Under the pieces are notes generated by a model. The model was not told the origin of the DNA. It did no database searches and worked only from the letters and a program-made list of their open reading frames with translations. A program made the position numbers and the translations under genes. A DNA stretch of 64,000 nt from assembly GCA_038373885.1 (NCBI GenBank), contig JAWZYV010017527.1, forward strand, positions 558,001-622,000. Direction: 5' to 3'. Positions within the stretch are counted from its first letter, which is position 1, and each line of letters begins with the position of its first letter. Shown one piece after another: positions 1,850-43,054 of the stretch. Source of the DNA: Cheiracanthium punctorium (taxonomy: Eukaryota > Arthropoda > Arachnida > Araneae > Cheiracanthiidae).

Positions 1850-4800
1850 CTGAAAAAAATATATTAATAATTAATAATCATTGATTAATCCATCAAAATG
1901 GGTCCCCACAGTGGCTGAGGGGATAAATAAGACACTGAACACGGTAGTTGGGTGAAGTGTGAAGGTCCCGGGTTCAGACATACCGCTCCGCCATCGATCT
2001 AACGGCCTGGAGTTTGGGGCAGTTATCCCTGGATACAACGTCAATCGGCATTAGAACCTCTTAAAAAGTTTTCCGACCAAGGCAACCCTCCTTAGGCAAA
2101 TAGCCCTCTGGCAGCTTTACCTTAATACCCAATTCACAATGCCATCAAAATTGCACTGCTTTAAGTTTTTGAAATAACCGTGCTCGGTACAATTTTCTTT
2201 AAATTTAATTTTTTTTTTTAGAGTTACAATCCGAAATAACATTAGTACATCTTTTTTTTTTTATATGTAATATCAAGCATATTCTTATTGATTTACCTGC
2301 CATACTTTTCCTACGCATAGACAATAGGTATCACGCTGCTAATTATAAGGGGGAGGGGACAGATTAAGCCCTGCAAAAGTTGCCTATGCTTGAAGGGGCC
2401 CCTGTAAATTTAATCCAGAGACTTCCGTAACAGGCTTCTGAGCACGAAAGTAAACGTAATTACGCAGTCGTTATTCAGAGAAAATATCGCACATGTTATG
2501 CTATGATTTAGAAATAATTCATGATTTTCCAGTGGGTGGAAGACCGACTTAACTGGAAAACTGTGGGTGGAAGACGGGGGGGTCTCTTAATTTTGAGCCA
2601 ATTCCGGATGAGAGACCCAGCATCTGGATCGACAACCTCAGAGGTATTGTTTGAACAGGGAGCCAACATTGGAGCCACGAACACTTTTTAGACCGTGCAC
2701 CATCTCAAGTTAATCAATGACTGTTAAAAGTAAAATTACTATAGTGCATTCGCCGAGTCGAGAGAACGAAACTAAACAATTGCACGTGCAAACTGGCGAT
2801 GAGTATACACCTGGCATTTTGCCAAAAGCGCCAACCACAGTGTGAATTTCTGCTTTCTTCCATTGACGCTGTTTGGAATTAAGAAAGGTTAAATTCGCCT
2901 AACTAGGGATCGGTGCCAAAAATGTAATTCTGTGGTAACCCGTTTGTTTACTTTCGTTCTCTCGTTTCCGCTATTCATGCTGTTGTTGTTTTTAACCCTT
3001 TGAGGCGCAACCCTTTCCCAATGCTGAAAAAAGGGCAGCCGTTGCCATCGCTCGACTTAACTACCAGCAAGATGGAGGACGATCGAAACGTTCATCGCGT
3101 GCCACAGATCTAGAGACCCCTTTTTTGACGACAGCTGGCTGTGCCAGCTGCGTCAAAAACGGTCTCTCGATCTGTGGCACGCGATGAACGTTTCGATCGT
3201 CCTCCATCTTGCTGGTAGTTAAGTCGAGCGATGGCAACGGCTGCCCTTTTTTCAGCATTGGGCAATCTATCCAGCTGTTCTTCGCATTCTTCCATTTTTC
3301 AGCAGATGTCAGTACTGTTGAAAATAATCGTGACCATTTTTTGACGGGAAATGACGTGCTAAAAAGTAAAGGATTCTCGTGGAGCTATGTCACCCGCAAC
3401 TATTTTGTATAGAAATCCAATCTATTCTTCGTGACTGGCAGCAGTCAAAACGTCAGAGTTTGGTGTTCCCAGACCGGGAACACTGAGCGTTAAAAGGTTA
3501 ATACTCTCTGGCAGAAACGGGGCGGTGCCAGATCCTCCCTATAGCCCGGCGAAGGACGAAATTAGGCGTCTTCAATTTTAATGAGCCCCAGTGGGAGGAA
3601 GGCCAAATTAACGCTTTTATGGAATTCTATTTGGCTTTGTACAGAAATATATACACATACGAGCGTCTTCTTCGAACTTTTCGTTCCACCAGTTTTGTAG
3701 CGACTGCCTGAGGTCGGGGGACTTTTCTATGTCTTCCTTGGTGATGTCGCTCTCTCTGTCCATCACGTGGTTCATGGCCGCCAACAACTCCAATCCGTCG
3801 AGCTGCTTGTCGTCGTTCAAGTCGTGGAGCCTGGAAACGAAAATGAAATATCATATGTTATGTGCAGACATCACGCAGACGCTTGTCAAAATATATTCAG
3901 AGAATGCCAAAATCGTGTACCAAAAATTTTCGCTATTACAACTTTCTATTTTTACTTTCCGAACATGTAAGTAGTAGATAAATGTTCGTTCTGCCCAGCC
4001 GGATCCCATGTTAATTCACCGGATCCGTTCGGATGCTTTCCCTGGGTCGAGAGAGAGAGAGGGGGGCGTGGTCGGACCGGATGTGGGGACCGGATGTTCG
4101 AAGGGTTGATAAGAATTTTTTTTTCCTTTTTTTCAAATAAGGGGACTTGAAATTTTTTCAGACTTTAACAATTTTCTCAAATAAGGAGACTTGTAATTTT
4201 TTCAGACATTAAGATATTTTTGAAATAAGGGGACTTGGAAAATTTTTCAGACTTTAACAATTTTTCAAATAAGGAGACTTGTAATTTTTTCAGACTTTAA
4301 CATTTAGTATCAAAATAAGCGACTTTGACATAATTTTAAATAAGCTATATGAATTAAACCTGAAATAAAAAATATTATTATAAAAATGAGGACCCACCAG
4401 CCGCCCGGTAGAACTCGTCTACCGCCTCATTTCAAATAAAAATTCTTACTATGCTTTTCCACGTCACGCTAGCCTCGCATGAATGGAGACAGGGCGTAGC
4501 ACAGAGGATGCGTTGTTGTTTTTGTTTCTTTAAATAATAATTAACTATGTGGAGCAAAGAAATGAACAACATCCCCAGGAGGATTTAGTTTTCTTTACCA
4601 TTTAGTAATAGAACCAATGCAAATTGAATAAATGCTGCTTAATACATACTTCTAATTTTTGTATACTGATTATAGCATATATTTAATAAGTAACAGTTTA
4701 CTAGAATATTAAAGTAGGGTTTAGGATACCCATACATTTTCTACAAATTTCTTCTACTGTTAGGGAAGTGAGAAAATTATACCATAGAAAGATTTTACAA

Positions 4801-7800
4801 ATAATGATATAGTCTTATATTCTATTGCGAGAAAACCACTTTAGCCATATATCCCCCAAAACTCAAGTTTTTGTATACGAAATGCATGAATACGCGTTAG
4901 ATCCCCTTAGAAAGTCTTCCTACCAAGGCACCCCTCATCCTAGGCAGATACCCCCGCGTGCAGGTTTGCCTTAAAACACAAACAAACAAAGTATTTATCT
5001 AAACATTTTTTTTTTCTTAAGAGATTTTTACCCAAGTTTTAATTTTAAGTTAAATAAGTAATTTTACAACAAATATTTTTTTAACCAACAGTTTTAATTT
5101 TAAGTTAAATAATTTTACAACAAATTTTTTTTAAATTAATTTTACAACAAATATTTTTTTAATCAAGAGTAATTTATTTTTATTATTATTTTTTAACCAA
5201 CAGTTTTAATTTTAAGTTAAATAATTTTACAACAAATATTTTTTTTAATCAAGAGTTAATTTATTTTTAACCGAGTTTTAATTTTAAGTTAAATATTTTT
5301 CTAAATTTTTTTTAACCAAGTTTTAATTTTAAGTTAAATAATTTTACAACAAATTTTTTTTAATCAAATGTTTTTAATTTATCAAGAAAAAAAATTTAAT
5401 CAAGTGTTTTTAATTTTTTGTATATCCTATTTTTGTTAAGTAGCCGTTTAACATTAAAGTAGGATACCCATACATTTTCTACAAATTTAATCTACTGTTA
5501 GGGAAGTGAGAAAATTATACCATAGAAAGATTTTACAAATAATGATTTGGATATAGTCTTATATTCTATTGCGAGAAAACCACTTTAGCCATATACCCCC
5601 CAAAACTCAAGTTTTGATATACGAAATGTATGAATACGCGTTAGATCCCCTTAGAAAGTCTTCCTACCAAGGCACCCCTCATCCTAGGCAGATACCCCCG
5701 CGTGCAGGTTTGCCTTAAAACACAAACAAACAAAGTATTTATCTAAACATTTTTTCTTACCCACACATTTCTGATAGATTTTAGGCAGCGATTATACTAG
5801 TTTATATTTTCTATAGATCAATTAGAGAAAAAATTGCATTTTTAGTAATCCTACAAAATATTCTTACTGTATATCCCAAGTAGAGTAACATGATTTATAG
5901 AATTTCAATACGATACGAGTTAGATTGTTTATGTGCAAAACTAATTTCAGTTTGACTATGAAAGCATAATTTTATACATGCATTAATATTTTTAGAGGTG
6001 TGCACTTAACCTATTTTATAGAAAGGTGAGCATAACTAGCACAAACTTTTAGACTAGATAGTACTATTGTTAGAAAGTTGAACTATTGGAAATAAAAATT
6101 GAAGATCCGTTTTAGCACAGTTTTATACTGCATGTACATAAATATCTTTCAATACTTAGATAGTTTAAATCACAAATTATTACTTAAACTAAAAAATACA
6201 AGGTTTTTACTTACGTGAAGGGACATCGTTCTAAATCTTCTAGTCTCTGGACAAAGTACCAACATCTATACGGCTAGCAAGACCGGAAAATCGAATAATG
6301 ATTTAAAATACATTATCCCTAATTCCCGGTCCAACTAGCACATTTTCATTCATTCTTAATACCATCATATGCTGAAATAGGTATATTATTTTGACACTAA
6401 AAACAAAACACATTTGAAGATATTAAACGCTTTAAAAGTAATTTTTTTTTTCTTATAACAATTTACCAGATTCACAATGCTATTTTATGTAGGATAAAAT
6501 TAGTTAGCAAGCGAAAATTTAAACTTAGTTAGAATTTACTGAAATACAAATACCATGCATGCCTTATTTTCTATTAGGAGAAAGCCCTCAAACCCCAGTT
6601 TTTGTATACAAACTGCATAAAGTACTTCTACCGATAATGCTATTAATATTAATTACACTGGATTACCAACTTAAAATTTTGCAAAACACCAAAATACAGA
6701 AAAACATGCATTAACAAAAAAAATCACACTTAAAAGTACAACACATCAAAAGTGCAACTATAAGAACCACATAATTATTTTCAATTAGAATTACGGTATC
6801 AACTTATATGTAACTAAAATAATAGAAAATATTACACTTACCCTGTACTTGTACACGCGAGAGGCGAAAATAATAAAAATATTCGCAAATATATCCACAG
6901 CATAAGTAAAATCCACGTGCATATCCCTAGTACAGCTGATAAGAAATTGAGATAAGAAAGTGCCTTGAGACCCTACAGAGCCGGTACAATAAGAGTTGGC
7001 CAGTTTACCGATAAGATAAAACCAGGGAGGGTGCTAGGGGAATACCGAATTGTGGGGACACGTGTTTCATTCTACGTTCAAAAATGGGGACTTATGGATT
7101 AAGATCATGTTAGATTAAAGCCATTTCAATAAAAATCTATCCTTTTTGTAAACATGGGCATTATATCCTAAATTAAAATATCAAAGTTAAGCTACAACGA
7201 TTAATATATTTTACGTAGTTTAGGAAACTAATGAATCATTAATTAATTTTTGTGAAACAATTAGCAAAGATCATTATACTAAAGCAAATTATTTTTGCTC
7301 AGTTTTGATAAATAACAGTAATAAATTATAGGCATTGCAGATGAATGAGTTCACGTATAAAATAGGTATTAAAATTATTGTTTAAAACAATTTTTAGAAT
7401 AATAAACTAAAATTTTTATTTAATAAAGTCATAAACTAAAATTATTAATGAAAACTTGTTAATAAATTAAACATATCAAAATTTTTACACTCAATTTTTT
7501 TTATAGACTTAAATTTTACATAGACATCCTTTTAATAAATTCATAAACTAAAACAATTTTTACAATAATAAACTAAAATATTTATTTAATAAAGTCATAA
7601 ACTGAAATTATTAATGAAAACCTGTTAATAAATTAAACTGATGACTCTAAAAGATAGCTAATCACAACATATATCAGAAAAAATATAAGCAATTATAATA
7701 CCTGAAAAATACCGGACAACACTCTTGTTGCATGCGGACAAAACATCGTTCTGCTCGGCTAAAGAATTCTTAGGTATCCGTTGCAGGAGAACTTACATAC

Positions 7801-10800
7801 GCCCAACCTACAAACTCTACAAATTTAACGGCAACTGATTTTCTCTTATCAGGCATCACAGATCAGATAAGAGATAAGGAAGTGACATGCGCAGAAGACA
7901 CGTGATAGTGACGTGTGCAAATCTGTGTTGATTGAATATCCGGTAGGTTTCTGGCAGGATGTACTATTTACATTGAGTGGCAACTCTCAGAACAGGCTAA
8001 GACAAGTTAGATGATGCAATATCTACAGGTTTGAGGAAGGTAGAGGGCGCTTGGGTAATCACGTGATTTTTTAAAGAATCAGTAAAGACATTTTAGTTAG
8101 ATAAAGTGGTCAGGTGTGTGTTGCGAGACTCTCTTTACACTGTGTGCGCCTATACTTAAGACGTGTGTTTTAATTGATTTTTCGCCGAGTTTCAAAAATG
8201 TCTTTGCTTGAATCGATCGAAAATAACTTTAACATTGAATACACTCCCGAGTTTTATACTCAAAGTGATGCCGATGTGTTGCTGCAAGAAATAATACAAT
8301 TGCCTTTAGATGTAAAGCCTCTGCAAAGTATTGAAAAGAAAATTTCCCCCGAGTTTTATACTGAAAGTGATTTTGGCGTGCTACAGCAAGAATTGTTTCA
8401 ATTACCCCTACAAAGTAGTGAAAAGAAAATTTCCTCGACCCGTAAAGTAATTACTTTTGCTGATGAAGGAATCAATTACAGTTTACCTGGAGCAACAGTC
8501 TCTGTTTACTCTTGGATACCCATTTTGCAAAAAATACGTGAAGATCTACAGAAAGTGACAAATTATGAATTTAATATGGTACAAGTGAACTTTGGCTCTG
8601 AAGAACAACCTAAAACTGTAGACGGTAACTACGAAGATTTTAATCTAGACCTATCATCAGGTGTATGCATTCTAAGTTTTGGATCTAAACGAACTTTGGA
8701 TTTTAAACCAGCGAACTGTGAAACCGCTACCATTAAATTAGAACATGGTTCAATGTGTAAGATATATCCCCCAACCAACAAACTTTTAACGCATGGTATT
8801 CCTTCTGAACCTTATGTGACAGACCCGCACATTAACCTAACATTTGCCAAAATGTACATTTATGAGCCTTCCCCGAAAAGGGCAAAGTTGGACAATTGGA
8901 CGGACGATCTTTACCATAGCTTATATGCTTCTGTAAATAGTACATGGCACTTGGAAAGACTTATCTACGTTTCACTTCACGATGTAAGAACCGACTTGGA
9001 GATCCATATTAGACAATTTATTCAGAATGCCCAATTAGACTACATACCAACCGGTCAGGGAGTCGTGATGAACCCTTCCACATGGATCGAATTTATTGTA
9101 AAACTATTAGATTTTAATATAGGGCATAGCAATAGCTCTTTTATTTGTAATAATCAATTATCTGTATTTAATGATGGTGGAAAATGCATCTTACAACAAA
9201 TTTATAAAACCGCAGATTCATTCACGTTAAATCCAATTTCCTTAACACTTTTAAATGATCAAGTAAAAAAACTTTGCGAAATGAGAAATGAAATATTGGA
9301 ATGCATTTTAAAAACGCTATATACGATGACCCTGCCTCATTTAATTTTAAAATTAAAGCCGCAAAAATGTAACCGCGAACCCCATTGTAATTACGATGAA
9401 GCTAAACAACAATTAATGGATATAGTACATCAGGAAATTTTTAAAAACATAGGCCGGGTTCAAGATCATTCTTCGCATAGGATACATGCCTGTTCGAATA
9501 GATCACATATTGATGAGCGAGAGGGTCTTATAAGTAGTAAAGCATGGTTTACGGTTGACATGCCGTATATTGCAAGAGAGATATGCGAGAAAAAATGCAC
9601 TTGTCATTATGACGGAGAATTTTTTTCAAACATTTTCATTGAAGACTATATGAAGTATCTTCAAAATGAGCTATTTAATTCATTTTTTCAACCGTTTTCA
9701 GATTTTGCGAATTCCAAGGATGACAAAACATGTGTAATTATGTGATGTATAACTAGTATTGCGATTGTAAAAAAAAAAAATTAAAACCATTGTGATTATG
9801 TAGAAAAGGCATGCTTGCTTCTACAACAGTAAGATATTACTGACTTGTGCATGCTTAGTTAAAGAATACTCATTGAAAAGTTATTATTTTCTTAATTGTG
9901 TAAATAGTTTGTGTAATTTAAAATATGTTTTTGTAAATAAATAAGTTTAAACATGAAAACTTTTCTGTGTTTTCTTTATGTGTATGTGCGTGCTGATTAC
10001 TTGCAAAATAAAAATATATTAAATAAAAAGTGATAAAGTTAGCATACTTGGTCACGATTTAAGGTTCTCGTTTTATACTTATCTTTTATACAATACAAGG
10101 TAGAAAGTTAGAAATTTAACAAAATTTATTGAAGCATGTACTATGGAAACATTAATCTACTACATAGAAATGAAATGTTTTGATTAAAATCATAAACTTA
10201 AGTGTAATAGGTAAATTGTGTTACATGAGAATTCCCAAAGTACTAATTTTTTATAAAATGAACTTAACTAAAAAAGTTAGTTTCCATAATTTTATAACTT
10301 AATCGATTTTACAGGTTTTTCAAAAATAAAGTTAAGTGAGATAAAGAAACTTAGTATTTTTTAAATAAAGAGTTTTTAGGTGTTCTTTAATGTAAAGATC
10401 TTACCATATTTTACTTGAAGTAACAGAATATTTAAAATCATACACTATGTTTTTAAAACATTAGAGTATTACCTTGGCATATTTTTATAATTTTTATTAA
10501 GTAATGGGCTTGAATATTTTTATGAGAAATATCAACTAAGTGCACATGTTACACATTTTACTGATTGAGATGGTTATGCTTACAAATTTTAAATAAATAT
10601 GCTCTTACTTTTATACATGTTACTTGTTCAAACTAAGTATACTTTTGATTTGTATACGTTTATGAGTTCTCATAAGTTATGAAATTATTTCTCGAAAGGA
10701 ACTTAGCTATTAGAACTTTGTAAATTTCGTAGAAGTAGTATGCTTAACATGTTTTTGATAAAATAGATTTAAATGTGGTACAGAAATGATCAGCTATTTT

Positions 10801-13800
10801 AGCATAGATGTATAAACTTATCTTTATGTAAACCTTAACTAATTAAAAGTAATATAATTTATGTCTGTACAAAGTGAGGGACTTAAACTATTTTTCAGAA
10901 TTATCAAGTAAAGGATTTTACAAAATACTTAGTAAACTGCATTAATAGATTGTAAGTTGTATTTTTTTCTTTTAGAAGTTTTGCACATTGTTATATTTTA
11001 TGTTCTGATAAGTCGTTGAATATGTTTTTGAAATAAACTAACATATCTGTACTTTGAAAATTTTATAGAAGTGACGAACTTTGGTATTTTTAGAATGTTA
11101 CGAACTTGATACATTTTTTCTGAAGTGCTAGATATGTGAAATTGGCTTTTTAGAAACATTGAATTATTCAACTTAGTACATTTGAGTTACTCTTTCAAGA
11201 TAACGGACTTAGAATTTTTTACAAATAGCAAGCTAGTAACTTGCTAAACCTGCTTCTTGCAAATATTTTTAAATACCGTTCTTAAAAATTATCAAAGTTG
11301 TAACTACTAAAAAGAAATAAACAAATTAAAATATAATAAATTATGTATTTAAAAATATTTGCAAGAAGCAGGTTTAGCAAGTTACTAGCTTGCTATTTGT
11401 AAAAAATTCTAAGTCCGTTATCTTGAAAGAGTAACTGAAATGCACTAAGTTGAATAATTCAATGTTTCTAAAAAGCCAATTTCACATATCTAGCACTTCA
11501 GAAAAAATGTATCAAGTTCGTAACATTCTAAAAATACCAAAGTTCGTCACTTCTATAAAATTTTCAAAGTACAGATATGTTAGTTTATTTCAAAAACATA
11601 TTCAACGACTTATCAGAACATAAAATATAACAATGTGCAAAACTTCTAAAAGAAAAAAATACAACTTACAATCTATTAATGCAGTTTACTAAGTATTTTG
11701 TAAAATCCTTTACTTGATAATTCTGAAAAATAGTTTAAGTCCCTCACTTTGTACAGACATAAATTATATTACTTTTAATTAGTTAAGGTTTACATAAAGA
11801 TAAGTTTATACATCTATGCTAAAATAGCTGATCATTTCTGTACCACATTTAAATCTATTTTATCAAAAACATGTTAAGCATACTACTTCTACGAAATTTA
11901 CAAAGTTCTAATAGCTAAGTTCCTTTCGAGAAATAATTTCATAACTTATGAGAACTCATAAACGTATACAAATCAAAAGTATACTTAGTTTGAACAAGTA
12001 ACATGTATAAAAGTAAGAGCATATTTATTTAAAATTTGTAAGCATAACCATCTCAATCAGTAAAATGTGTAACATGTGCACTTAGTTGATATTTCTCATA
12101 AAAATATTCAAGCCCATTACTTAATAAAAATTATAAAAATATGCCAAGGTAATACTCTAATGTTTTAAAAACATAGTGTATGATTTTAAATATTCTGTTA
12201 CTTCAAGTAAAATATGGTAAGATCTTTACATTAAAGAACACCTAAAAACTCTTTATTTAAAAAATACTAAGTTTCTTTATCTCACTTAACTTTATTTTTG
12301 AAAAACCTGTAAAATCGATTAAGTTATAAAATTATGGAAACTAACTTTTTTAGTTAAGTTCATTTTATAAAAAATTAGTACTTTGGGAATTCTCATGTAA
12401 CACAATTTACCTATTACACTTAAGTTTATGATTTTAATCAAAACATTTTATTTCTATGTAGTAGATTAATGTTTCCATAGTACATGCTTCAATAAATTTT
12501 GTTAAATTTCTAACTTTCTACCTTGTATTGTATAAAAGATAAGTATAAAACGAGAACCTTAAATCGTGACCAAGTATGCTAACTTTATCACTTTTTATTT
12601 AATATATTTTTATTTTGCAAGTAATCAGCACGCACATACACATAAAGAAAACACAGAAAAGTTTTCATGTTTAAACTTATTTATTTACAAAAACATATTT
12701 TAAATTACACAAACTATTTACACAATTAAGAAAATAATAACTTTTCAATGAGTATTCTTTAACTAAGCATGCACAAGTCAGTAATATCTTACTGTTGTAG
12801 AAGCAAGCATGCCTTTTCTACATAATCACAATGGTTTTAATTTTTTTTTTTTACAATCGCAATACTAGTTATACATCACATAATTACACATGTTTTGTCA
12901 TCCTTGGAATTCGCAAAATCTGAAAACGGTTGAAAAAATGAATTAAATAGCTCATTTTGAAGATACTTCATATAGTCTTCAATGAAAATGTTTGAAAAAA
13001 ATTCTCCGTCATAATGACAAGTGCATTTTTTCTCGCATATCTCTCTTGCAATATACGGCATGTCAACCGTAAACCATGCTTTACTACTTATAAGACCCTC
13101 TCGCTCATCAATATGTGATCTATTCGAACAGGCATGTATCCTATGCGAAGAATGATCTTGAACCCGGCCTATGTTTTTAAAAATTTCCTGATGTACTATA
13201 TCCATTAATTGTTGTTTAGCTTCATCGTAATTACAATGGGGTTCGCGGTTACATTTTTGCGGCTTTAATTTTAAAATTAAATGAGGCAGGGTCATCGTAT
13301 ATAGCGTTTTTAAAATGCATTCCAATATTTCATTTCTCATTTCGCAAAGTTTTTTTACTTGATCATTTAAAAGTGTTAAGGAAATTGGATTTAACGTGAA
13401 TGAATCTGCGGTTTTATAAATTTGTTGTAAGATGCATTTTCCACCATCATTAAATACAGATAATTGATTATTACAAATAAAAGAGCTATTGCTATGCCCT
13501 ATATTAAAATCTAATAGTTTTACAATAAATTCGATCCATGTGGAAGGGTTCATCACGACTCCCTGACCGGTTGGTATGTAGTCTAATTGGGCATTCTGAA
13601 TAAATTGTCTAATATGGATCTCCAAGTCGGTTCTTTCATCGTGAAGTGAAACGTAGATAAGTCTTTCCAAGTGCCATGTACTATTTACAGAAGCATATAA
13701 GCTATGGTAAAGATCGTCCGTCCAATTGTCCAACTTTGCCCTTTTCGGGGAAGGCTCATAAATGTACATTTTGGCAAATGTTAGGTTAATGTGCGGGTCT

Positions 13801-16800
13801 GTCACATAAGGTTCAGAAGGAATACCATGCGTTAAAAGTTTGTTGGTTGGGGGATATATCTTACACATTGAACCATGTTCTAATTTAATGGTAGCGGTTT
13901 CACAGTTCGCTGGTTTAAAATCCAAAGTTCGTTTAGATCCAAAACTTAGAATGCATACACCTGATGATAGGTCTAGATTAAAATCTTCGTAGTTACCGTC
14001 TACAGTTTTAGGTTGTTCTTCAGAGCCAAAGTTCACTTGTACCATATTAAATTCATAATTTGTCACTTTCTGTAGATCTTCACGTATTTTTTGCAAAATG
14101 GGTATCCAAGAGTAAACAGAGACTGTTGCTCCAGGTAAACTGTAATTGATTCCTTCATCAGCAAAAGTAATTACTTTACGGGTCGAGGAAATTTTCTTTT
14201 CACTACTTTGTAGGGGTAATTGAAACAATTCTTGCTGTAGCACGCCAAAATCACTTTCAGTATAAAACTCGGGGGAAATTTTCTTTTCAATACTTTGCAG
14301 AGGCTTTACATCTAAAGGCAATTGTATTATTTCTTGCAGCAACACATCGGCATCACTTTGAGTATAAAACTCGGGAGTGTATTCAATGTTAAAGTTATTT
14401 TCGATCGATTCAAGCAAAGACATTTTTGAAACTCGGCGAAAAATCAATTAAAACACACGTCTTAAGTATAGGCGCACACAGTGTAAAGAGAGTCTCGCAA
14501 CACACACCTGACCACTTTATCTAACTAAAATGTCTTTACTGATTCTTTAAAAAATCACGTGATTACCCAAGCGCCCTCTACCTTCCTCAAACCTGTAGAT
14601 ATTGCATCATCTAACTTGTCTTAGCCTGTTCTGAGAGTTGCCACTCAATGTAAATAGTACATCCTGCCAGAAACCTACCGGATATTCAATCAACACAGAT
14701 TTGCACACGTCACTATCACGTGTCTTCTGCGCATGTCACTTCCTTATCTCTTATCTGATCTGTGATGCCTGATAAGAGAAAATCAGTTGCCGTTAAATTT
14801 GTAGAGTTTGTAGGTTGGGCGTATGTAAGTTCTCCTGCAACGGATACCTAAGAATTCTTTAGCCGAGCAGAACGATGTTTTGTCCGCATGCAACAAGAGT
14901 GTTGTCCGGTATTTTTCAGGTATTATAATTGCTTATATTTTTTCTGATATATGTTGTGATTAGCTATCTTTTAGAGTCATCAGTTTAATTTATTAACAGG
15001 TTTTCATTAATAATTTCAGTTTATGACTTTATTAAATAAATATTTTAGTTTATTATTGTAAAAATTGTTTTAGTTTATGAATTTATTAAAAGGATGTCTA
15101 TGTAAAATTTAAGTCTATAAAAAAAATTGAGTGTAAAAATTTTGATATGTTTAATTTATTAACAAGTTTTCATTAATAATTTTAGTTTATGACTTTATTA
15201 AATAAAAATTTTAGTTTATTATTCTAAAAATTGTTTTAAACAATAATTTTAATACCTATTTTATACGTGAACTCATTCATCTGCAATGCCTATAATTTAT
15301 TACTGTTATTTATCAAAACTGAGCAAAAATAATTTGCTTTAGTATAATGATCTTTGCTAATTGTTTCACAAAAATTAATTAATGATTCATTAGTTTCCTA
15401 AACTACGTAAAATATATTAATCGTTGTAGCTTAACTTTGATATTTTAATTTAGGATATAATGCCCATGTTTACAAAAAGGATAGATTTTTATTGAAATGG
15501 CTTTAATCTAACATGATCTTAATCCATAAGTCCCCATTTTTGAACGTAGAATGAAACACGTGTCCCCACAATTCGGTATTCCCCTAGCACCCTCCCTGGT
15601 TTTATCTTATCGGTAAACTGGCCAACTCTTATTGTACCGGCTCTGTAGGGTCTCAAGGCACTTTCTTATCTCAATTTCTTATCAGCTGTACTAGGGATAT
15701 GCACGTGGATTTTACTTATGCTGTGGATATATTTGCGAATATTTTTATTATTTTCGCCTCTCGCGTGTACAAGTACAGGGTAAGTGTAATATTTTCTATT
15801 ATTTTAGTTACATATAAGTTGATACCGTAATTCTAATTGAAAATAATTATGTGGTTCTTATAGTTGCACTTTTGATGTGTTGTACTTTTAAGTGTGATTT
15901 TTTTTGTTAATGCATGTTTTTCTGTATTTTGGTGTTTTGCAAAATTTTAAGTTGGTAATCCAGTGTAATTAATATTAATAGCATTATCGGTAGAAGTACT
16001 TTATGCAGTTTGTATACAAAAACTGGGGTTTGAGGGCTTTCTCCTAATAGAAAATAAGGCATGCATGGTATTTGTATTTCAGTAAATTCTAACTAAGTTT
16101 AAATTTTCGCTTGCTAACTAATTTTATCCTACATAAAATAGCATTGTGAATCTGGTAAATTGTTATAAGAAAAAAAAAATTACTTTTAAAGCGTTTAATA
16201 TCTTCAAATGTGTTTTGTTTTTAGTGTCAAAATAATATACCTATTTCAGCATATGATGGTATTAAGAATGAATGAAAATGTGCTAGTTGGACCGGGAATT
16301 AGGGATAATGTATTTTAAATCATTATTCGATTTTCCGGTCTTGCTAGCCGTATAGATGTTGGTACTTTGTCCAGAGACTAGAAGATTTAGAACGATGTCC
16401 CTTCACGTAAGTAAAAACCTTGTATTTTTTAGTTTAAGTAATGATTTGTGATTTAAACTATCTAAGTATTGAAAGATATTTATGTACATGCAGTATAAAA
16501 CTGTGCTAAAACGGATCTTCAATTTTTATTTCCAATAGTTCAACTTTCTAACAATAGTACTATCTAGTCTAAAAGTTTGTGCTAGTTATGCTCACCTTTC
16601 TATAAAATAGGTTAAGTGCACACCTCTAAAAATATTAATGCATGTATAAAATTATGCTTTCATAGTCAAACTGAAATTAGTTTTGCACATAAACAATCTA
16701 ACTCGTATCGTATTGAAATTCTATAAATCATGTTACTCTACTTGGGATATACAGTAAGAATATTTTGTAGGATTACTAAAAATGCAATTTTTTCTCTAAT

Positions 16801-19800
16801 TGATCTATAGAAAATATAAACTAGTATAATCGCTGCCTAAAATCTATCAGAAATGTGTGGGTAAGAAAAAATGTTTAGATAAATACTTTGTTTGTTTGTG
16901 TTTTAAGGCAAACCTGCACGCGGGGGTATCTGCCTAGGATGAGGGGTGCCTTGGTAGGAAGACTTTCTAAGGGGATCTAACGCGTATTCATGCATTTCGT
17001 ATACAAAAACTTGAGTTTTGGGGGATATATGGCTAAAGTGGTTTTCTCGCAATAGAATATAAGACTATATCATTATTTGTAAAATCTTTCTATGGTATAA
17101 TTTTCTCACTTCCCTAACAGTAGAAGAAATTTGTAGAAAATGTATGGGTATCCTAAACCCTACTTTAATATTCTAGTAAACTGTTACTTATTAAATATAT
17201 GCTATAATCAGTATACAAAAATTAGAAGTATGTATTAAGCAGCATTTATTCAATTTGCATTGGTTCTATTACTAAATGGTAAAGAAAACTAAATCCTCCT
17301 GGGGATGTTGTTCATTTCTTTGCTCCACATAGTTAATTATTATTTAAAGAAACAAAAACAACAACGCATCCTCTGTGCTACGCCCTGTCTCCATTCATGC
17401 GAGGCTAGCGTGACGTGGAAAAGCATAGTAAGAATTTTTATTTGAAATGAGGCGGTAGACGAGTTCTACCGGGCGGCTGGTGGGTCCTCATTTTTATAAT
17501 AATATTTTTTATTTCAGGTTTAATTCATATAGCTTATTTAAAATTATGTCAAAGTCGTTTATTTTGATACTAAATGTTAAAGTCTGAAAAAATTACAAGT
17601 CTCCTTATTTGAAAAATATGTCAAAGTCTGAAAAATTTTCCAAGTCCCCTTATTTCAAAAATATCTTAATGTCTGAAAAATTTACAAGTCTCCTTATTTG
17701 AGAAAATTGTTACAAGTCTGAAAAAAATTTCAAGTCCCCTTATTTGAAAAAAAGGAAAAAAAATTCTTATCAACCCTTCGAACATCCGGCTCCCCACATC
17801 CGGTCCGACCACGCCCCCCTCTCTCTCTCTCGACCCAGGGAAAGCATCCGAACGGATCCGGTGAATTAACATGGGATCCGGCTGGGCAGAACGAACATTT
17901 ATCTACTACTCATGTACCATGTAAGGAAAGTATTGTAATCATGAAAAAATTCGACTTCGAGATTTTGGTGTTTTTACACGTTTTGAGGGCTTCTGAATCC
18001 ATTTATGCTATTTTTACGAGATGTATGTATGTATGTGTGTATGTGTGTGTGTGTGTATGTGTGTTTGTGTGTATGTGAGTGAACACGATAGCTCCTGAAC
18101 GGAGCATTCGATTGAGCTCAAATTGGATATATATGTCATAAACCACCGTCGCAAGACCGGTATTGATTTTGGTGTGTATAGGACTTATAGTTTTTCTACA
18201 GGGCTACGACAAAGATTTCTTTTACATTATGGCCTATGGGGGGAATTTCTTGAAAGTGCGCTAGCGTTTAAACGGTAGATTTGATTGAGCTCAAATTGGG
18301 TATACATGTTATAAACCACCGTTGCAAGACCGGTATTGATTTGGGTGTGTATAGGACTTATAGTTTTTCTACAGGGCTACGACAAAGATTTCTTTTACAG
18401 GATGGCCTATGATGGGAATTTCTTGAAAGTGCGCTAGCGTTTAAACGATACATTCGATTGAGCTCAAATTCGGTATACATGTTATAAACCACCATCCTAA
18501 GACCGGTATTGATTTTGGTGTGTATAGGACTTATAGTTCTCCTAAAGGGCTACGACAAAACTTTCTTTTATGTTATGGCATAATGGCATATGGGGAGAAA
18601 TTCTTGAAAGTGCGCAAGCGTTTAAACGGTGCATTCGATTGAGTTTCAATTTGGTATATATGTTTGAATTATTCATCGATTAAAATTTATTTAAGTGCTT
18701 GGTAATGATCTTAATCGTAAGTGTTCGGAAAGTCGAGTGGAGTCACTCCAGATTTTTTTTTCATCGTACATGGAAGTAAGAAACTAAACTCGTCTCATAG
18801 CTTTTGAAGGGTTTTAAGAGGCATATCGTTCCCCTAGAAGAATACTATGCCAACTCAAAAGTGAATCTTGTTGACCGTTAAAAAAAAAATCGACGCCGAC
18901 ATAAAAACAAAATGGCTAAGGTTTAGTTAAATGACGATAAAAAGATTGACTGCTACGAAATTTCTCCCGGCAGTTTGAATCTCCTTAGTTGCAAAATAGC
19001 CGTCTTTCAGCTAGACCTTGATCCTAGGAACCAAAAAGAAAATTACCGGAGCCAGATCAAGACTGTACGGAGGCTTGTGCAGTGTTGCCAGCCCCAGTGT
19101 GCTTGTTCAGCAATGGCTCCTGGAACCGCGCAAGAGATTACTAGGTTTGACATTTTTTTCTCCTGTTCGCTTTGGCAGAAGCACAATCAGGAGGTGAAAC
19201 TGGCACTACCAGAGATAGGAAGGAACAAAATTATTTCATAGTAAAAAGAGATTCACTTCCATCTGCAAAAGCGCTGGTATAATACAGTAGTTTGACAAAC
19301 TGAATTGACTATGTCATTTTATCTCTCATCTTTCGTGTATTTCGCCTGGTAGCCCTATGTTGAGATTTTTGTGATTGTAACCTATTTATAGAAAAATACA
19401 TGGTTATGCCTATTCTACAGCTTACGAAATAGTGTAACAATAGATTAAAACTGTTGTGAACTGATTGTATTTAAATATGTGTGAAATCATGTCGCATTTT
19501 TATGTCGCTTTTTGGGACGCATTTTTCGGATAATTTTCAATAAAGGGGTGAGAGATAAAATGACACAGTCATTAAAAAGCTACAATTTCTACAAAACCAA
19601 AATTAAAGGGTGTTTTAGGGGCATTGTGTCATGTAGCGCAAATTGAATTTCACTTATATTGAAAAGAGGTGATCATTTACGTAGTTCTCAAATGTTCTAC
19701 GTAAAGTGGTCCATAGCGTTCAGTATTTCTACTCTTGTGACACGTATGCGGTTTGGGTGCACATCGTCGTCATCATCATCAGGTATCTCGTTGGTTCTGG

Positions 19801-22800
19801 GTATCGAATTGGTTATTATTTTTAGTAAAATTCTGTTAAGTGTATTAACAGTTGTCTTGACTGAACACCTCCACACAAATATGAGTCATCTTTAACTGGC
19901 TTTCACTTCGCCCTAAATTGCGTCGAAATTTTGCTTCATGTCACCAGATTACTTGACCGGATAAAGCGGCACTCACTACCGGGGTAACCGGCGGAAAACC
20001 AGTGCTGTTTGGCCATTTCTTTCAGTTCATACAGATTTTCACCGGAATAAGCGGCTCACCGGATAAACCACTGCAGACCGAAATAAGCGGCGACCACTGT
20101 ATCAAATTTAGGCTATTAGGTGACTGCAAAGGACTGAAACAATTATGTGAATCTGCGTCCCTGATTTTCCAGGCCCGTATCATATTTTGTAGTGATAAAG
20201 GATAATTAAAATTCTTTTTCGGTGTTCAAACAATAGGGATGCAATGGCAGAATTTGCGCAGAAAAGATGCGCAGTCGTCTGTCACTCAGATGACGTAAGT
20301 GAAAGGTCACGTCGAAATGCTCTATAACAGTGGACGATGTCGAAGGAAAGTAGCCAAACAGCTTGAAGGACTGTACTGTTCATCAACACTACTTTTACTG
20401 TTGATTTTTTGAGTGTCACTTGTTAAACGTAAAAGGATGTCACATCACATCGATACCGTTCGGTTCAATATATTACTTTCAGACAGTGGCGTCGCAGGAG
20501 AATCCTTTTGACGGCGCCCATTTAAAACAAATTTTTTGAACGCCTTCTCCCAAGAAGTGCCGCCTGGGCAAGATCCTTCACCTTAGTTACACCCAAGCAG
20601 CAAGAAATCCCCGGCCGCATCTCGGCCTACTGTCTTCACGCGACCCCTATTTCACCCTGCCGACCTCGGCGCGCGACCTCCGTTGTAGGTTGGGGATGTC
20701 AGGTTGGGAAACGGTCCCTGGACCGTCCGCTCGGAAGCAATTCTGCGCATCTCCGGACGATTTCCCGAGGATTCCCCGACAATTTGTTCGCAATACCGCG
20801 ATTCTACCTAAGTGCTTTAGAGATTGCTTAAGGAGCTTATTTAGCCCCATGTACATCGATTTATTCCAACTTCCAACATTTTAATAGAACAAAACGGCAA
20901 AATCTTATTTGTACATTTTGTAAGTTAAAAAAAAAAAGTATTTAACCGTGAAAAATAATTTTCTCTAATTTTTTTCAATCTCTTATTTAAGAATCACAGG
21001 CAGAATTTTTAGATTTACGATCATCTAAAGCTTTTTAACTTACAAATTTTACCTAGGTACTTTTGAAAAACGTAAAAATTTTACCAATTTTGTAAATAGA
21101 CGCTCCTACATCGAAAAATTACACACATTTGTATTAACTACCCCTAACTCTGAGGTGGCAAAGTGGTTTGTTGGCTTGCCGGGAGAGGACAGCTCACGTC
21201 ACTGAATGTATCGTTTAGAGCTACGTACGTCTTTCCTGGAGTTTCCTGCTATAACGTGGATCCTCATCAGAAGGTGGGGAGACTTCTGAATAGTGGCACA
21301 CCTCCGAAACTGCTAGAAGAGACAGCCGAATGGACTTTCGGAACAGTGGATTTAACGTGCACTTACGCCGCATGTACACGGTGGTCTTTAGCGATACATC
21401 GATATCGAACCCGCAACGTTACGGTTAAGAGCCCAACGCCTTAACCACTGGTTCGAACACACCATGCGTATCAGACTTGAGGGTGGGGGGGTAAGAGAAA
21501 GAAACTAACAAATCCTTACTGGAAATAGAAAATCTCCATTTCTGTGTCATCCAGTTTGTCAGCAAAATCGCTGTTATACATTTCCTGCACGTCTTCTTTT
21601 ATGTGCCTGTAATGAAAGATCGGAAAACAAATGTTTACAAAATTTCAGGCAAAAAACAAGCAATACGTCAGTAAGAAGAAAGTCGTGGTTTTAGAACGAT
21701 CCTGGTCGACTCTTATTAGGGAGTTTTTGCAGGTACCGTTTCTTCCTACGTTAACCCTTTGAGGCGCAACCCTTTCCCAATGCTGAAAAAAAGGGCAGCC
21801 GTTGCCATCGCTTGACTTAACTACCAGCAAGAGGGCGGACGATCGAAACATTCATCGTGTGCCAACGATCTTTTTTGAAGATCGATCTTTTTTGAAGAGA
21901 CCTTTTTTGACGCAACTGGCTGTGCCGCACAGCCAGCTGTCGTGAAACAAAGGGTCTCTAGATCTGTGGCACGCGATGAACGTATCGATCGTCCGCCATC
22001 TTGTTGGTCGTTAAGTCGAGCGATGGCAACGGCTGCCCTTCTTTCAGCATTAGGCAATCTATCCAGCTATTCCCGCATTCTTCTATTTTTCAGCAGATGT
22101 CAGTGCTGTTAAAAATAATCTTTTTACGGGAAATAACGTTCTAAAAAGTAAAGGATTCCCGTGGAGCTATGTCACCCGCAACTATTTTTATAGAAATCCA
22201 ATCTATTCTTCGTGACTGGCAACAGTCAAAACGTCAGAGTTGGGTGTTGCCAGAGCGGGAACACTGCGCGTTAAAGGGTTAACACTTACGCTATCCGCTA
22301 TGCGGAGTTACGAACCAATCATAAAACTTTATAAGTGCGCATGCGCTTACTGTAAGATAACATTTAGCGTTGGCGTTACCGTCAGTGAAACCGCTGAGCA
22401 AAAACTCCCTGTTATTTCATTCGGATCGTTTCCTGATAGTTTCTGATCGATTCATGTTATTTCATTCGGATTATTTCATTCTGTTATTATATTCCCTGTT
22501 ATTTCATGCGCCGATCTGCACTAAGGTCACCACAACTAAAGCTTGGACCAAGCTATTAGTTGTAGTGACCGCGGAATGAAAATGGCGCGACCCATGGTCT
22601 GCCCGTATATTGTTAGGGGCCATTGGCGCCGCCAGAATATATCCCGGGGGGGGGATGCAAAGACTACTTAATAGTATGGTTACCATGTTGAAAAGAACAA
22701 AAAAGCAAGGGAAAACACTGCATACAAAAATCCAGGGGGGGCAAGTGTCCCCGCCCCCTTGCCGTGTGCTGCCGGCGCCCATGTTAGGGGCTTCATTCCA

Positions 22801-24213: not shown

Positions 24214-24690
24214 ACTTTCCGAACATGTACCATGTAAGGAAAGTATTGTAATCACGAAAAAATTCGACTTCGAGATTTTGGTGTATTTACACGTTTTGAG
24301 GTCTTCTGAATTCAGTGAAGCTATTTTTACGAGATGTATGCATGTATGTGTGTGTGAGTTTGTGTGTATGTGAGTGAACACGATAGCTCCTAAACGGGGA
24401 ATTCGATTGAGAACAGATTGGGTATGTAGGTTATAAACCACCGTCGCAAAACCGGTATTGATTTTGGTGTGTATAGGACATACAGTTTTTCTACAGGGCT
24501 ACGACAAATATTTCTTTTACATTATGGCCTATGGGGAAAAATTCTTGAAAGTGCGCTAGCGTTTAAACGGTGCATTCTGGTATATATGTTTGAATTATTC
24601 ATCGATTAAAATTTATTTAAATGTTTGGTAATGATCTTAATCGTAAGTGTTCGGAAAGCCGAGTGGAGTTACATCAGATTTTTTATTCTT
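24214..24690. repeat. Long repeat family A, uninterrupted copy (empty insertion site)
   Basis: This is homologous to the repeat at 3949-3969 plus 17911-18720, without the 13.9-kb insertion and with one 173-bp unit rather than about three and a half. It reads CCGAACATGTACCATGTAAGG across the target site. Confidence 0.8.
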
Positions 24691-24839
24691 AGTACAGTGT
24701 TGGCCAAGTCATTGGACTCATTTCTCCGAAAATCATGTTTCCTTTGTTTTAACAGCATTTGTCATTAAATTTATTTTAGTTAGGATTCCTACAAAATTTG
24801 TTTGTCTTCATAAAAGCCGATGACGGCTAAGTACTGACA

Positions 24840-25312: not shown

Positions 25313-25845
25313 TTAACCCTTTGAGGCGCAACCTTTTCCCAATGCTGAAAAAAGGGCAGCCGTTGCCATCGCTCGACTTAACTACCAGCAAGATGGCGGA
25401 CGATCGAAACGTTCATCGCGTGCCACAGATCTAGAGACCCTTTTTTGACGACAGCCATCGCCAATTGGGAAAGCGGGCACAGCCAGCTGCGTCAAAAAAA
25501 AAAGGGTCTCTAGATCTGTGGCACACGATGAACGTTTCGATCGTCCGCCATCTTGCTGGTCGTTAAGTCGAGCGATGGCAACGGCTGCCTTTTTTCCAGC
25601 ATTGGACAATCTAACTAGCCGTTCTCGCATTCTTCCATTTTTCAGCAGATGTCAGTGCTGTTAAAAATAACCGTGACAATTTTTTTTACGGGAAATGACG
25701 TGCTTAAAAAGTAAAGGATTTTCGTGGAGCTATGTCACCCTCAGCTATTTTTATAGAACTCAAATCTATTCTTCGTGACTGGCAACAGTCAAAACGTCAG
25801 AGTTGGGTGTTCCCAGAGCGGGAACACTGCGCGTTAAAGGGTTAA
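25313..25845. mobile_element. Fold-back piggyBac-like MITE, copy 3
   Basis: TTAA at both ends; termini CCCTTTGAGGCGCAACC and GCGCGTTAAAGGG. The inverted arms are complete and the tip is altered (GCCATCGCCAATTGGG). Confidence 0.7.
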
Positions 25846-26832: not shown

Positions 26833-27272
26833 TTAACCCTTTGATGCGCAACCCTTTCCCAATGCTGAAAAAAGGGCAACCGTTGCCATCGCATCGACGC
26901 TGTGCGCGTACAGCCAGCTGTCGTCAAAAAATTTTCTCTCGATCTGTGGCACGCGATGAACGTTTCGATCGTCCGCCATCTTGCTTGTAGTTAAGTTGAG
27001 CGATGGCAACGGCTGCCCTTTTTTCAGCATTGGGCAATCTATCCAGCTGTTCTCGCCTTCTTCCATTTTTCAGCAGATGTCAGTGCCGTTATAAAGAATC
27101 GTGACCATTTTTTGACGGGGAAAGGACGTGCTAAAAAGTAAAGGATTCTCGTGGAGCTCTATCACCTGCAACTATTTTTATAGAAATCAAATCTATTCTT
27201 CGCGACTGGCAAAAGTCAAAACGTCAGAGTTGGGTGTTCACAGAGCGGGAACACTGTGCGTTAAAGGGTTAA
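26833..27272. mobile_element. Fold-back piggyBac-like MITE, copy 4 (one arm shortened)
   Basis: TTAA at both ends and the family termini. The left arm is cut short (GCCATCGCATCGACGCTG), so only the right arm is full length. Confidence 0.65.
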
Positions 27273-27783
27273 TCGAAGTTCTCTGCTGTCGGATTTTTTT
27301 TTTTTTTTTTTAGACCATTCTTTTACAATCGCTTGCGAATGTTACTTCACGTAAGGCAACTGGACAGGACAACCTTTAAAACATATTTGGCGAGTTGTTT
27401 GTCATGTTATATTCCATAGGATGGAGTTTTGTGGATGCCCAATGGCCATCTGCGACGTCATCACTCCACAAGCGTATGGAGATTTCCATCGTTTGAGAGT
27501 TTTGATCCATATTCAGATTATTCGAATGGATGAATGAAAATCGTCTGCATTTTGCATAAAAGTTGATAAACGTATCGAAAAATAAATAATTCGATATAGT
27601 GGTTAACTTGAACATGGAATGTGCTTATATGTTATGTTCAAACCACTTAATTTAAGTTAACACAACCATGGTTCACACTTGCGAAGAACGGGCAATCAGC
27701 TATTTATTTCTATAAAATGTAATTGCTTAGTTCTTATTTTTTATGTTATTTCATTATCAACATGCCTTTGTTTCACAGCATTT
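27273..27783. other. Non-coding stretch between two elements
   Basis: It starts with a T run and then AT-rich single-copy-looking sequence. No feature is recognised. Confidence 0.35.
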
Positions 27784-36700: not shown

Positions 36701-36734
36701 TGTGTCCTCTGTGCGAACGCAGGCCCTGAAAGGT

Positions 36735-37197
36735 TTAACCCTTTGAGGCGCAACCCTTTCCCAATGCTGAAAAACGGGCAGCCGTTGCTATCGCTCGACT
36801 TAACTACCAGCAAGATAGCAGACGATCGAAACGTTCATCGCGTGCCACAGATCGAGAGACCCTTTTTTGACGGCAGCTGGCTGTGCTCGGCACAGTCAGT
36901 CGATCCGCTATCTTGCTGGTAGTTAAGTCGAGCGATAGCAACGGCCGACCTTTTTTCAGCATTGGCTATCTATCCAGCTGTTCTCGCATTCTTCCATTTT
37001 TCAGCAGATATCAGTGCTGTTCAAAATAATCGTGACCCATTTTTAACGGGAAATGACGTGCTAAAAAGGATTCTCGTGGAGCTCTGTCACCCGCCACTAT
37101 TTTTATAGAAATCCAATCTATTCTTCGTGACTGGCAACAATCAAAACGTCAGAGTTTGGTGTTCCCAGAGAGGGAACACTGCGCTTTAAAGGGTTAA
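36735..37197. mobile_element. Fold-back piggyBac-like MITE, copy 5
   Basis: TTAA at both ends. The second arm is shortened after CACAGTCAG. Termini are CCCTTTGAGGCGCAACCC and GCGCTTTAAAGGG. Confidence 0.65.
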
Positions 37198-37239
37198 AGC
37201 TTTTCAGATCTAACTCTCCAGCTTTAAGGGGGCCCCCCA

Positions 37240-42418: not shown

Positions 42419-42487
42419 CTGTTTTTAATCTTGAACCTGGATTAATTTAATCTCTTTTATCAGTTGAAAAGACAAAGAAGAATGACT

Positions 42488-43054
42488 TTAACCCTTTAAA
42501 GTTCAGTGTTCCCGCTCTGGGAACACCCAACTCTGACGTTTTGACTGTTGCCAATCACGAAGAATAAGATTGGATTTCTATAAAAATAGTGGCGGGTGAC
42601 ACAGCTCCATGAGAATCCTTTACTTTTTAGCACGTCATTTCCCGTCAAAAAATGGTTACGATTATTTTGAACAGCACTGACATCTGCTGAAAAAGGGAAG
42701 ACTGCGAGAACAGCTGGATAGATGGCCCAATGCTGAAAAAGGGCAGCCGTTGCCATCGCTCGACTTAACGACCAGCAAGATGGCGGACCATCGAAACATT
42801 CATCGCGTGCCACAGATCTTTTGACCCCCTACGTCTAGACCCTATTCTAGACGCAGCTGGCTGTGCACAGCCAGCTGCGTCAAAAAGGGTCTCTAGATCT
42901 ATGGCACAGCCAGCTGCGTCAAAAAAGGGTCTCTTGATCTGTGGCACGCGATGAACGTTTCGATCGTCCGCCATCTTGCTGGTAGTTAAATCGAGCGATG
43001 GCAACGGCTGCCCTTTTTTCAGCATTGAGAAAGGGTTGTGCCTCAAAGGGTTAA
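42488..43054 (-). mobile_element. Fold-back piggyBac-like MITE, copy 7 (inverted)
   Basis: TTAA at both ends; orientation opposite to the other copies. The hairpin tip is expanded, with AGCTGGCTGTGC and GCACAGCCAGCTGCGTC repeated. Confidence 0.7.

What the first reader, a model, noticed from the sequence alone, without database searches (positions are those of the whole stretch)
3970..17910. A 13.9-kb near-perfect palindromic mobile element with Maverick/Polinton-like ends
Seen: two arms of 7.3 and 6.6 kb are inverted copies around a 70-bp spacer, with AGTAGTAG...CTACTACT ends and a 6-bp duplication. Known: Maverick/Polinton elements are reported to have AG...CT ends and 6-bp duplications, and protein-primed linear DNAs such as adenovirus produce symmetric snap-back molecules. 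Inference: this is a hairpin-derived palindromic dimer of one end of a Maverick-like element, integrated in trans. A full-length palindrome with both ends and a duplication would be an unusual class of non-autonomous element.
Basis: partly seen in the sequence, partly recalled or inferred. Interest (0 to 1): 0.95.

Follow-up and report, generated by a model that had tools for sequence, protein, structure and literature searches.

The report
Palindromic satellites of Maverick transposons
A probable spider genome carries many copies of a 14-kilobase mirror-image mobile element that has the ends of virus-like Maverick transposons and appears to be remade from one arm before it inserts, which would make it a DNA parasite of a parasite.

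Summary
The palindrome is real. Arms 3970-11276 and 11345-17910 differ by 8 substitutions, a few 1-nt indels and one 744-bp deletion, around a 68-nt spacer, with AGTAGTAG...CTACTACT ends and a CATGTA duplication. It belongs to a family: its central loop has 124 matches in the 2.53-Gb host assembly. Of 10 other inverted pairs fetched, 9 are palindromes of this kind and one is a Maverick with polymerase and integrase genes sharing these ends. Nine of 10 palindromes, window included, have a perfect 6-bp duplication.

Three results favour a satellite remade by fold-back copying of one arm: the two arms of each copy are sisters in 10 of 10 copies; both arms carry the same Maverick end type in 10 of 10, six left and four right; two loci hold the loop twice, inverted. 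Each arm has one conserved gene (dN/dS 0.25), an ALKBH2-PC4 protein without its catalytic residues. Movement by Maverick enzymes is inferred; chromosomal gene conversion between arms is not excluded.

The parts
3964..3969 (.). left copy of the 6-bp target-site duplication CATGTA
3970..11276 (+). left arm (7307 nt)
3970..4582 (+). arm end shared with Maverick C10415 (arm positions 1-613): TIR with ~44-bp tandem repeats (4129-4302), then a left-end-specific part (arm 361-613, 98.4% to the Maverick's PolB-side end)
4722..5011 (+). first copy of a 296-bp direct repeat inside the left arm
4886..5629 (+). about 744 bp present in the left arm and missing from the right arm (exact edges uncertain inside the direct repeat)
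5460..5755 (+). second copy of the direct repeat
8198..9745 (+). ORF of 515 aa from ATG (523 aa stop to stop from 8174): degenerate ALKBH2-like domain (~1-221), PC4-like domain, helical C-terminal part
11277..11344 (+). unpaired central spacer (loop); the same loop is found in most other copies examined, and about 25 nt of the usual 92-nt centre is missing here
11345..17910 (-). right arm (6566 nt), inverted copy of the left arm
12876..14423 (-). second copy of the 515-aa ORF, one amino acid different
17911..17916 (.). right copy of the 6-bp target-site duplication CATGTA

Best explanation
A palindromic satellite of Maverick/Polinton elements. SHOWN: a dispersed family of ~13-15 kb palindromes with Maverick ends, mostly with exact 6-bp duplications, a shared central loop and one conserved gene per arm, in a genome that also holds a Maverick with both ends (C10415) and many intact Maverick integrase genes. 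INFERRED: while outside the chromosome the satellite is copied by the helper's protein-primed PolB. A displaced strand of a palindrome folds into one long hairpin closed by the loop, with the replication origin (TIR) at its stem end. Copying round the hairpin makes both arms from one strand, so arms are reset to identity, a newly acquired end spreads to both arms, and occasional fold-back beyond the loop leaves an inverted second loop. The helper's integrase then inserts the finished palindrome. Arm divergence would then date each insertion, as LTR divergence does. The arm gene is related to a Maverick ALKBH2-PC4 gene but has lost its dioxygenase residues; I infer that it now acts as a DNA-binding (probably ssDNA/hairpin) factor for the satellite.
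For: Family and unit transposition: of 10 inverted pairs fetched (of 11 seen, chosen because paired), 9 are palindromes and one is a Maverick; perfect 6-bp TSD in 9 of 10 palindromes incl. the window, and in that Maverick (read). The loop was found in 8 of 9 fetched palindromes and 10 of 11 probed centres, in both orientations; 124 genome matches, 0 for the control pattern. Arms: sisters at support 1.000 in 10 of 10 copies, 0.02-2.2% apart versus 3.5-4.4% to the nearest other copy. Between-copy relations change from block to block while arms stay sisters in 10, 8 and 9 of 10 (my reading of the trees). End types: both arms concordant in 10 of 10 (6 left, 4 right); right-type copies are not one clade in the inner-arm tree. 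Two loci, C953 and C5925, read arm-loop-loop'-arm'. A second palindromic type from the integrase end, C11434 (7-nt loop, TSD GATGTC), and a two-integrase-ended element, C7917 (TSD TACGTC), show that such derivatives recur. Copy C15167 keeps the last 90 residues of PolB, 100% identical to C10415, fused to arm sequence. Gene: dN/dS 0.245 among 9 TIR-selected copies (C6706 dropped, no intact left ORF), dN<dS in 36 of 36 pairs; substitutions private to a copy and shared by both arms 35 N: 30 S, no stop, synonymous excess p=5e-5.
Against: No extrachromosomal form, replication or helper dependence was observed. C6706 has a frame break and 7 N: 0 S changes shared by both arms, as expected if arms can also be homogenised after insertion, although transposition of a dead copy explains it too. 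The contrast between shared and one-arm changes is not significant (Fisher p=0.17). Three copies (C9789, C13902, C11293) have patchy arm differences, many of them alleles found in other copies, so arms are not always reset completely; C11293's arms are not sisters in the inner-arm tree, and its centre (about 0.7 kb) is not mirrored and shows no loop match. One of 12 probed ORFs shows no partner arm in the stretch read (L043). C8075 has no TSD. PC4 similarity is below Pfam's cut-off for the single sequence (E 0.04) and clearer only as a profile (2.4e-4). Only one Maverick was read in full.
Confidence: 0.7

Rival explanations
1. An ancestral palindromic Maverick derivative was dispersed, and its arms are kept identical by arm-to-arm gene conversion in the chromosome, as in Y-chromosome palindromes (recalled).
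For: Within-copy identity far above between-copy identity; C6706 shares a frame break and only non-synonymous private ORF changes in both arms; patchy arm differences in three copies look like partial conversion tracts.
Against: Substitutions shared by both arms carry a selection signature and no stops (35 N: 30 S), which unselected insertions would not give. Both arms share the helper end type in 10 of 10 copies. An inverted second loop needs copying through the centre, not conversion between arms.
Confidence: 0.2
2. Each palindrome formed on its own from a single-arm element, at or after insertion, by a DNA-break fold-back.
For: Secondary fold-backs do occur (C953, C5925), and palindromes of other Maverick parts exist (C11434).
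Against: The same loop lies at the centre in 8 of 9 fetched palindromes and 10 of 11 probed centres, with 124 matches in the genome; both ends with exact 6-bp TSDs in 9 of 10 show insertion as a finished palindrome; of 12 apparently unpaired ORFs probed (of 50 unpaired rows), 10 show an inverted partner arm, one runs into a contig end and one shows none.
Confidence: 0.04
3. Assembly artefact (chimeric or missing-adapter reads joined as mirror images).
For: Some loci are hard to assemble: C10865 ends just before the centre of a copy and C9733 about 2 kb beyond one; some arm differences are homopolymer indels.
Against: Flanks are unique and not mirrored; TSDs are exact in 9 of 10 and differ per locus; a conserved asymmetric loop lies between the arms.
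Confidence: 0.02
4. An independent transposon that merely resembles Mavericks and is moved by its own 515-aa protein rather than by a helper.
For: The ORF is conserved and a 52% identical homologue exists in another source.
Against: The protein is an ALKBH2 fold plus PC4 with no integrase or transposase match in Pfam, and the arm ends are nearly identical to one or other end of a resident Maverick.
Confidence: 0.04

Closest known systems
Maverick/Polinton elements
   Same: AGTAGTAG ends and 6-bp TSD (end motifs (AGT)2//(ACT)2 and 6-bp TSDs are given for vertebrate Mavericks in PMC8097293, passages seen); left or right subterminal sequence nearly identical to a Maverick in the same genome; the one gene is a homologue of a gene of that Maverick
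   Different: No PolB, integrase, capsid, protease or ATPase ORF in the palindrome; the element is one inverted repeat; the AlkB domain has lost catalytic residues
Symmetric snap-back or copy-back defective genomes, e.g. Ad12 SYREC in adenovirus (recalled; 'SYREC' has 0 occurrences in the 10 papers listed of 34)
   Same: Palindrome with a helper end at both tips and other DNA inside; formation by fold-back in protein-primed replication is the natural reading
   Different: Here the form is an integrated, multi-copy family with a conserved loop and a gene under selection
Foldback-type transposons (FB, Galileo; recalled)
   Same: Inverted repeats make up nearly the whole element
   Different: Here 6-bp TSD, Maverick ends, no P-type or MULE transposase seen, and arms near-identical within copies
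Human ALKBH2 (3bty, 4mg2)
   Different: The satellite protein lacks the HxD His and Asp and both Arg (catalytic roles recalled) and is joined to a PC4-like domain

Membership tests
Maverick/Polinton | 6-bp target-site duplication | tested here: met
   9 of 10 palindromic copies incl. the window, and Maverick C10415
Maverick/Polinton | TIRs starting with AG / (AGT)n | tested here: met
   AGTAGTAG at both tips of all 10 palindromic copies printed; motif from PMC8097293
Maverick/Polinton | encodes PolB, rve integrase, capsid proteins, protease and ATPase | tested here: not met
   only the 523-aa ORF exceeds 150 aa in the element; in C10415 rve and chromodomain are above cut-off, ATPase and protease matches just below it, PolB read from motifs, capsid assumed
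Maverick/Polinton | mobilised by Maverick integrase and PolB | not testable with these tools
   inferred from shared ends only
Foldback-type transposon (Galileo/FB) | element consists almost entirely of long inverted repeats | tested here: met
   all but 68 nt and the 744 bp missing from one arm are paired
Foldback-type transposon (Galileo/FB) | P-type or MULE transposase and longer TSD in full relatives (recalled) | tested here: not met
   the full relative C10415 has an rve integrase and a 6-bp TSD
Dada transposons | full relatives of these ends belong to this family rather than to Mavericks | tested here: not met
   C10415 carries rve integrase and PolB motifs; 8 other Maverick-integrase loci tested (L055 left out) match the arm end at 75-86%; no Dada model was searched as such
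AlkB / 2OG-Fe(II) dioxygenase (ALKBH2-like enzyme) | ALKBH2 fold | tested here: met
AlkB / 2OG-Fe(II) dioxygenase (ALKBH2-like enzyme) | HxD...H iron triad and R...R 2-oxoglutarate residues | tested here: not met
   HxD Asp to Tyr, both Arg to His and Ala, His to Gly (His kept in P0001); kept in the Maverick homologue
PC4 | PC4 domain similarity | tested here: met
   profile A6 to 6ycs 2.4e-4 and 1pcf 4.2e-4; single-sequence Pfam hit below cut-off

The most novel reading that the evidence does not exclude
A satellite virus with a hairpin life cycle. Its genome is a self-complementary palindrome (perhaps packaged as a folded single strand or a half-length duplex) replicated and packaged by Mavericks. 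Its own conserved pseudo-AlkB-PC4 protein binds the displaced or hairpin strand to favour the satellite over its helper. It keeps pace by repeatedly exchanging its ends with either end of the helper and copying the new end to both arms. The lineage may be old: a 52% identical protein from an unnamed source (P0001) shares three of the catalytic losses and, if it comes from another species, the split came later than the loss.
Probability: 0.25. Interest if true: 0.95.

Novelty: new variant of a known kind. Interest (0 to 1): 0.86.

Why it matters
Mavericks are thought to be integrated viruses that replicate by protein priming, but their extrachromosomal phase is hardly known. Palindromic satellites would leave a readable trace of it: the loop, the secondary fold-backs and the concordant end types all look like records of hairpin copying. 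Arm divergence could serve as an insertion clock. The family also suggests a helper-satellite relation between DNA transposons inside an animal genome, with a repurposed DNA-repair enzyme as the satellite's only recognisable gene. Large palindromes can break contigs (one contig ends just before a centre), so such elements may be under-reported.

Tried and rejected
Rejected: chance or simple-repeat palindrome; assembly artefact; unrelated transposon family; independent fold-back at each locus (see rivals). Considered and dropped: that the arm is simply a Maverick half. Blastn of the arm against C10415 beyond position 613 finds only two ~40-bp matches inside the AlkB-like gene and short AT-rich matches. 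Led nowhere: Rfam scan of the window (none); phage tblastn (none); IMG/VR scans with the protein (none) and with alignment A4 (77 pattern hits, none confirmed); second homologue search with A1 (P0001 again only); PHROGs on five Maverick proteins (only endonuclease VII); PDB phmmer of the PolB ORF (the 60 rows shown, of 257, are zinc-finger chains, so PolB is named from motifs read in the ORF, recalled and not from a call); first structure model (pLDDT 40.5). In the pdb_via list only the AlkB part was tested; no PC4 row appears there, which excludes nothing. Literature: ten full-text searches of the open-access library listed no paper that by title or abstract opening describes palindromic Mavericks; six of the ten lists were capped below the number of papers found, and subscription journals and Repbase were not searched. 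Papers: PMC8097293, PMC6431247 and PMC2836005 seen as passages only, all others as listings. Not obtained: a whole-genome count of the ORF (a 54-nt pattern asked to one search did not complete) and of the shorter loop variant; the pair C8421, the eleventh, was not fetched.
Full report
What is there. The window holds a 13.9-kb inverted repeat at 3970-17910. The arms are 3970-11276 and 11345-17910, with a 68-nt spacer between them. Outside the spacer they differ by 8 substitutions over 6562 aligned bases, five 1-nt indels near the ends, and one 744-bp deletion on the right. Both tips read AGTAGTAG inward and CATGTA flanks both sides. Each arm carries a 515-aa ORF pointing to the centre.

A family. 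The host assembly has 2.53 Gb in 15,171 contigs, and the window is C12436:558001-622000. Searching with the first 231 bp of the element gave 40 scored candidates of 1804; besides the window I count eleven inverted pairs 13-16 kb apart. I fetched ten of the eleven as halves, so palindromes were favoured by choice. Nine are palindromes whose halves match each other at 96.5-99.9% over their main stretches; the tenth, C10415, shares only its ends with the window. With the window, nine of ten palindromic copies have perfect 6-bp duplications, read by eye from the printed flanks; C8075 has none. A protein search listed 84 scored matches of 3397 candidates, 83 of 84 without a stop; I count 17 convergent pairs and 50 unpaired rows. 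Both lists are top-scoring samples. I probed the centre beside 12 of the 50 unpaired ORFs, skipping several near contig starts. Seven are symmetric, two have an inverted partner arm with a longer asymmetric centre, one has an inverted outer arm but no partner ORF, one shows no partner within the stretch, and one runs into a contig end. The loop was found in 8 of 9 fetched palindromes (not C11293) and in 10 of 11 probed centres searched for it. As a 64-nt pattern with up to 3 mismatches it occurs 124 times, with 0 for the reversed control. At least two of the listed loci contribute two matches each (C953, C5925), and loops with indels, like the window's, are missed.

The helper. C10415:24110-40910 (halves L027, L028) is a Maverick with both ends and TSD GTCGAG. 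Its genes are a 1227-aa ORF with N-terminal C2H2 fingers, an endonuclease VII-like segment and B-family polymerase motifs that I read from the sequence; an ATPase (Pox_A32, 1.4e-4, just below cut-off); a weak adenovirus-type protease match (0.009, below cut-off); a 421-aa ORF whose capsid nature is assumed, not tested; and an integrase with rve (9e-12) and chromodomain (1.6e-8). Integrase matches are abundant: 115 rows from 7411 candidates, of which the first 45 are full-length at 99-100% without a stop by my count. Only C10415 was read in full. Window-arm positions 361-613 match its PolB-side end at 249 of 253 bases and its other end at 41%. One relative, C15167, still carries the last 90 residues of PolB, 100% identical to C10415, joined to arm sequence.

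Arms are recopied. In a tree of 20 whole arms the two arms of every one of the ten copies are sisters with support 1.000. Within-copy divergence is 0.02-2.2%, against 3.5-4.4% to the nearest other copy. In the inner-arm tree it is 9 of 10 (C11293 fails), and in three blocks 10, 8 and 9 of 10, while relations between copies change from block to block. Thus copies seem to recombine with one another, yet arms mostly stay paired. All ten copies carry one end type on both arms: left-type in the window, C6706, C9789, C8854, C8150 and C11642; right-type in C8075, C2785, C13902 and C11293. The right-type copies fall in three places in the inner tree, so more than one swap is likely. In C953 and C5925 the centre reads arm-loop-loop'-arm', a second fold-back beyond the old loop.

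Other palindromes. Among the integrase rows are four inverted pairs. C11434 is mirrored at 99.75% over the 2 kb read at its centre, with a 7-nt loop; its tips match over 452 bp and are flanked by GATGTC. C7917 has two inverted integrase ends, a non-mirrored middle and TSD TACGTC. C15019 and C12392 are not mirrored at their midpoints. Fold-back derivatives of Mavericks therefore recur here.

Results that pull the other way. C6706 has a frame break in both arms and 7 N: 0 S shared changes. Three copies have patchy arm differences: 53, 148 and 72 substitutions, many of them alleles seen in other copies. These suit either heterogeneous templates before insertion or conversion afterwards. C11293 has an unmirrored centre of about 0.7 kb without the loop. 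C8075 lacks a TSD, and a 125-bp stretch of its left flank recurs on the right.

Interpretation. Best supported is a Maverick-dependent palindromic satellite whose arms are reset by hairpin copying in an extrachromosomal phase, and which inserts as a finished palindrome. The anatomy, the family, the concordant end types and the selection on the gene are shown; the replication route, helper dependence and protein function are inferred. It shares Maverick ends but fails Maverick membership on gene content, so I call it a satellite of Mavericks, not a Maverick.

Noticed in passing
G000:C11434:67900-82700 (L061, L065, L066): A second palindromic Maverick type made of the integrase end, with a 7-nt loop and TSD GATGTC; only centre and tips were read.
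   Followed up: partly
G000:C7917:533450-541400 (L062, L067, L068): Maverick derivative with two inverted integrase ends, a non-mirrored capsid-like/protease middle and TSD TACGTC.
   Followed up: partly
G000:C8075:351000-365850 (L009, L010): Palindromic copy without a TSD; the first 125 bp fetched of its left flank recur exactly in the right flank.
   Followed up: no
G000:C15167:2858-6086 (L006): Palindrome relative that keeps the last 90 residues of a Maverick PolB fused to arm sequence.
   Followed up: partly
L027:917-4597 (-): Maverick PolB-like ORF begins with C2H2 zinc fingers and holds an endonuclease VII-like segment.
   Followed up: no
P0005: Another homologue of unnamed source that differs from the catalytic residues at the same Asp and both Arg; perhaps a second satellite lineage.
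   Followed up: no
window 39299-40281 (+): Remains of a Tc1/mariner-type transposase (HTH_Tnp_Tc3_2, DDE_3).
   Followed up: partly
window 45153-45506 (-): hAT transposase dimerisation segment.
   Followed up: partly
window 18098-18664: A 173-bp tandem repeat array starts about 190 bp right of the palindrome, with related copies near 24224-24696.
   Followed up: no
window 2992-3505, 21751-22286, 25313-25845, 26893-27273, 36734-37199, 42486-43054: A ~500-bp interspersed repeat, partly self-inverted, present about six times in the window.
   Followed up: no
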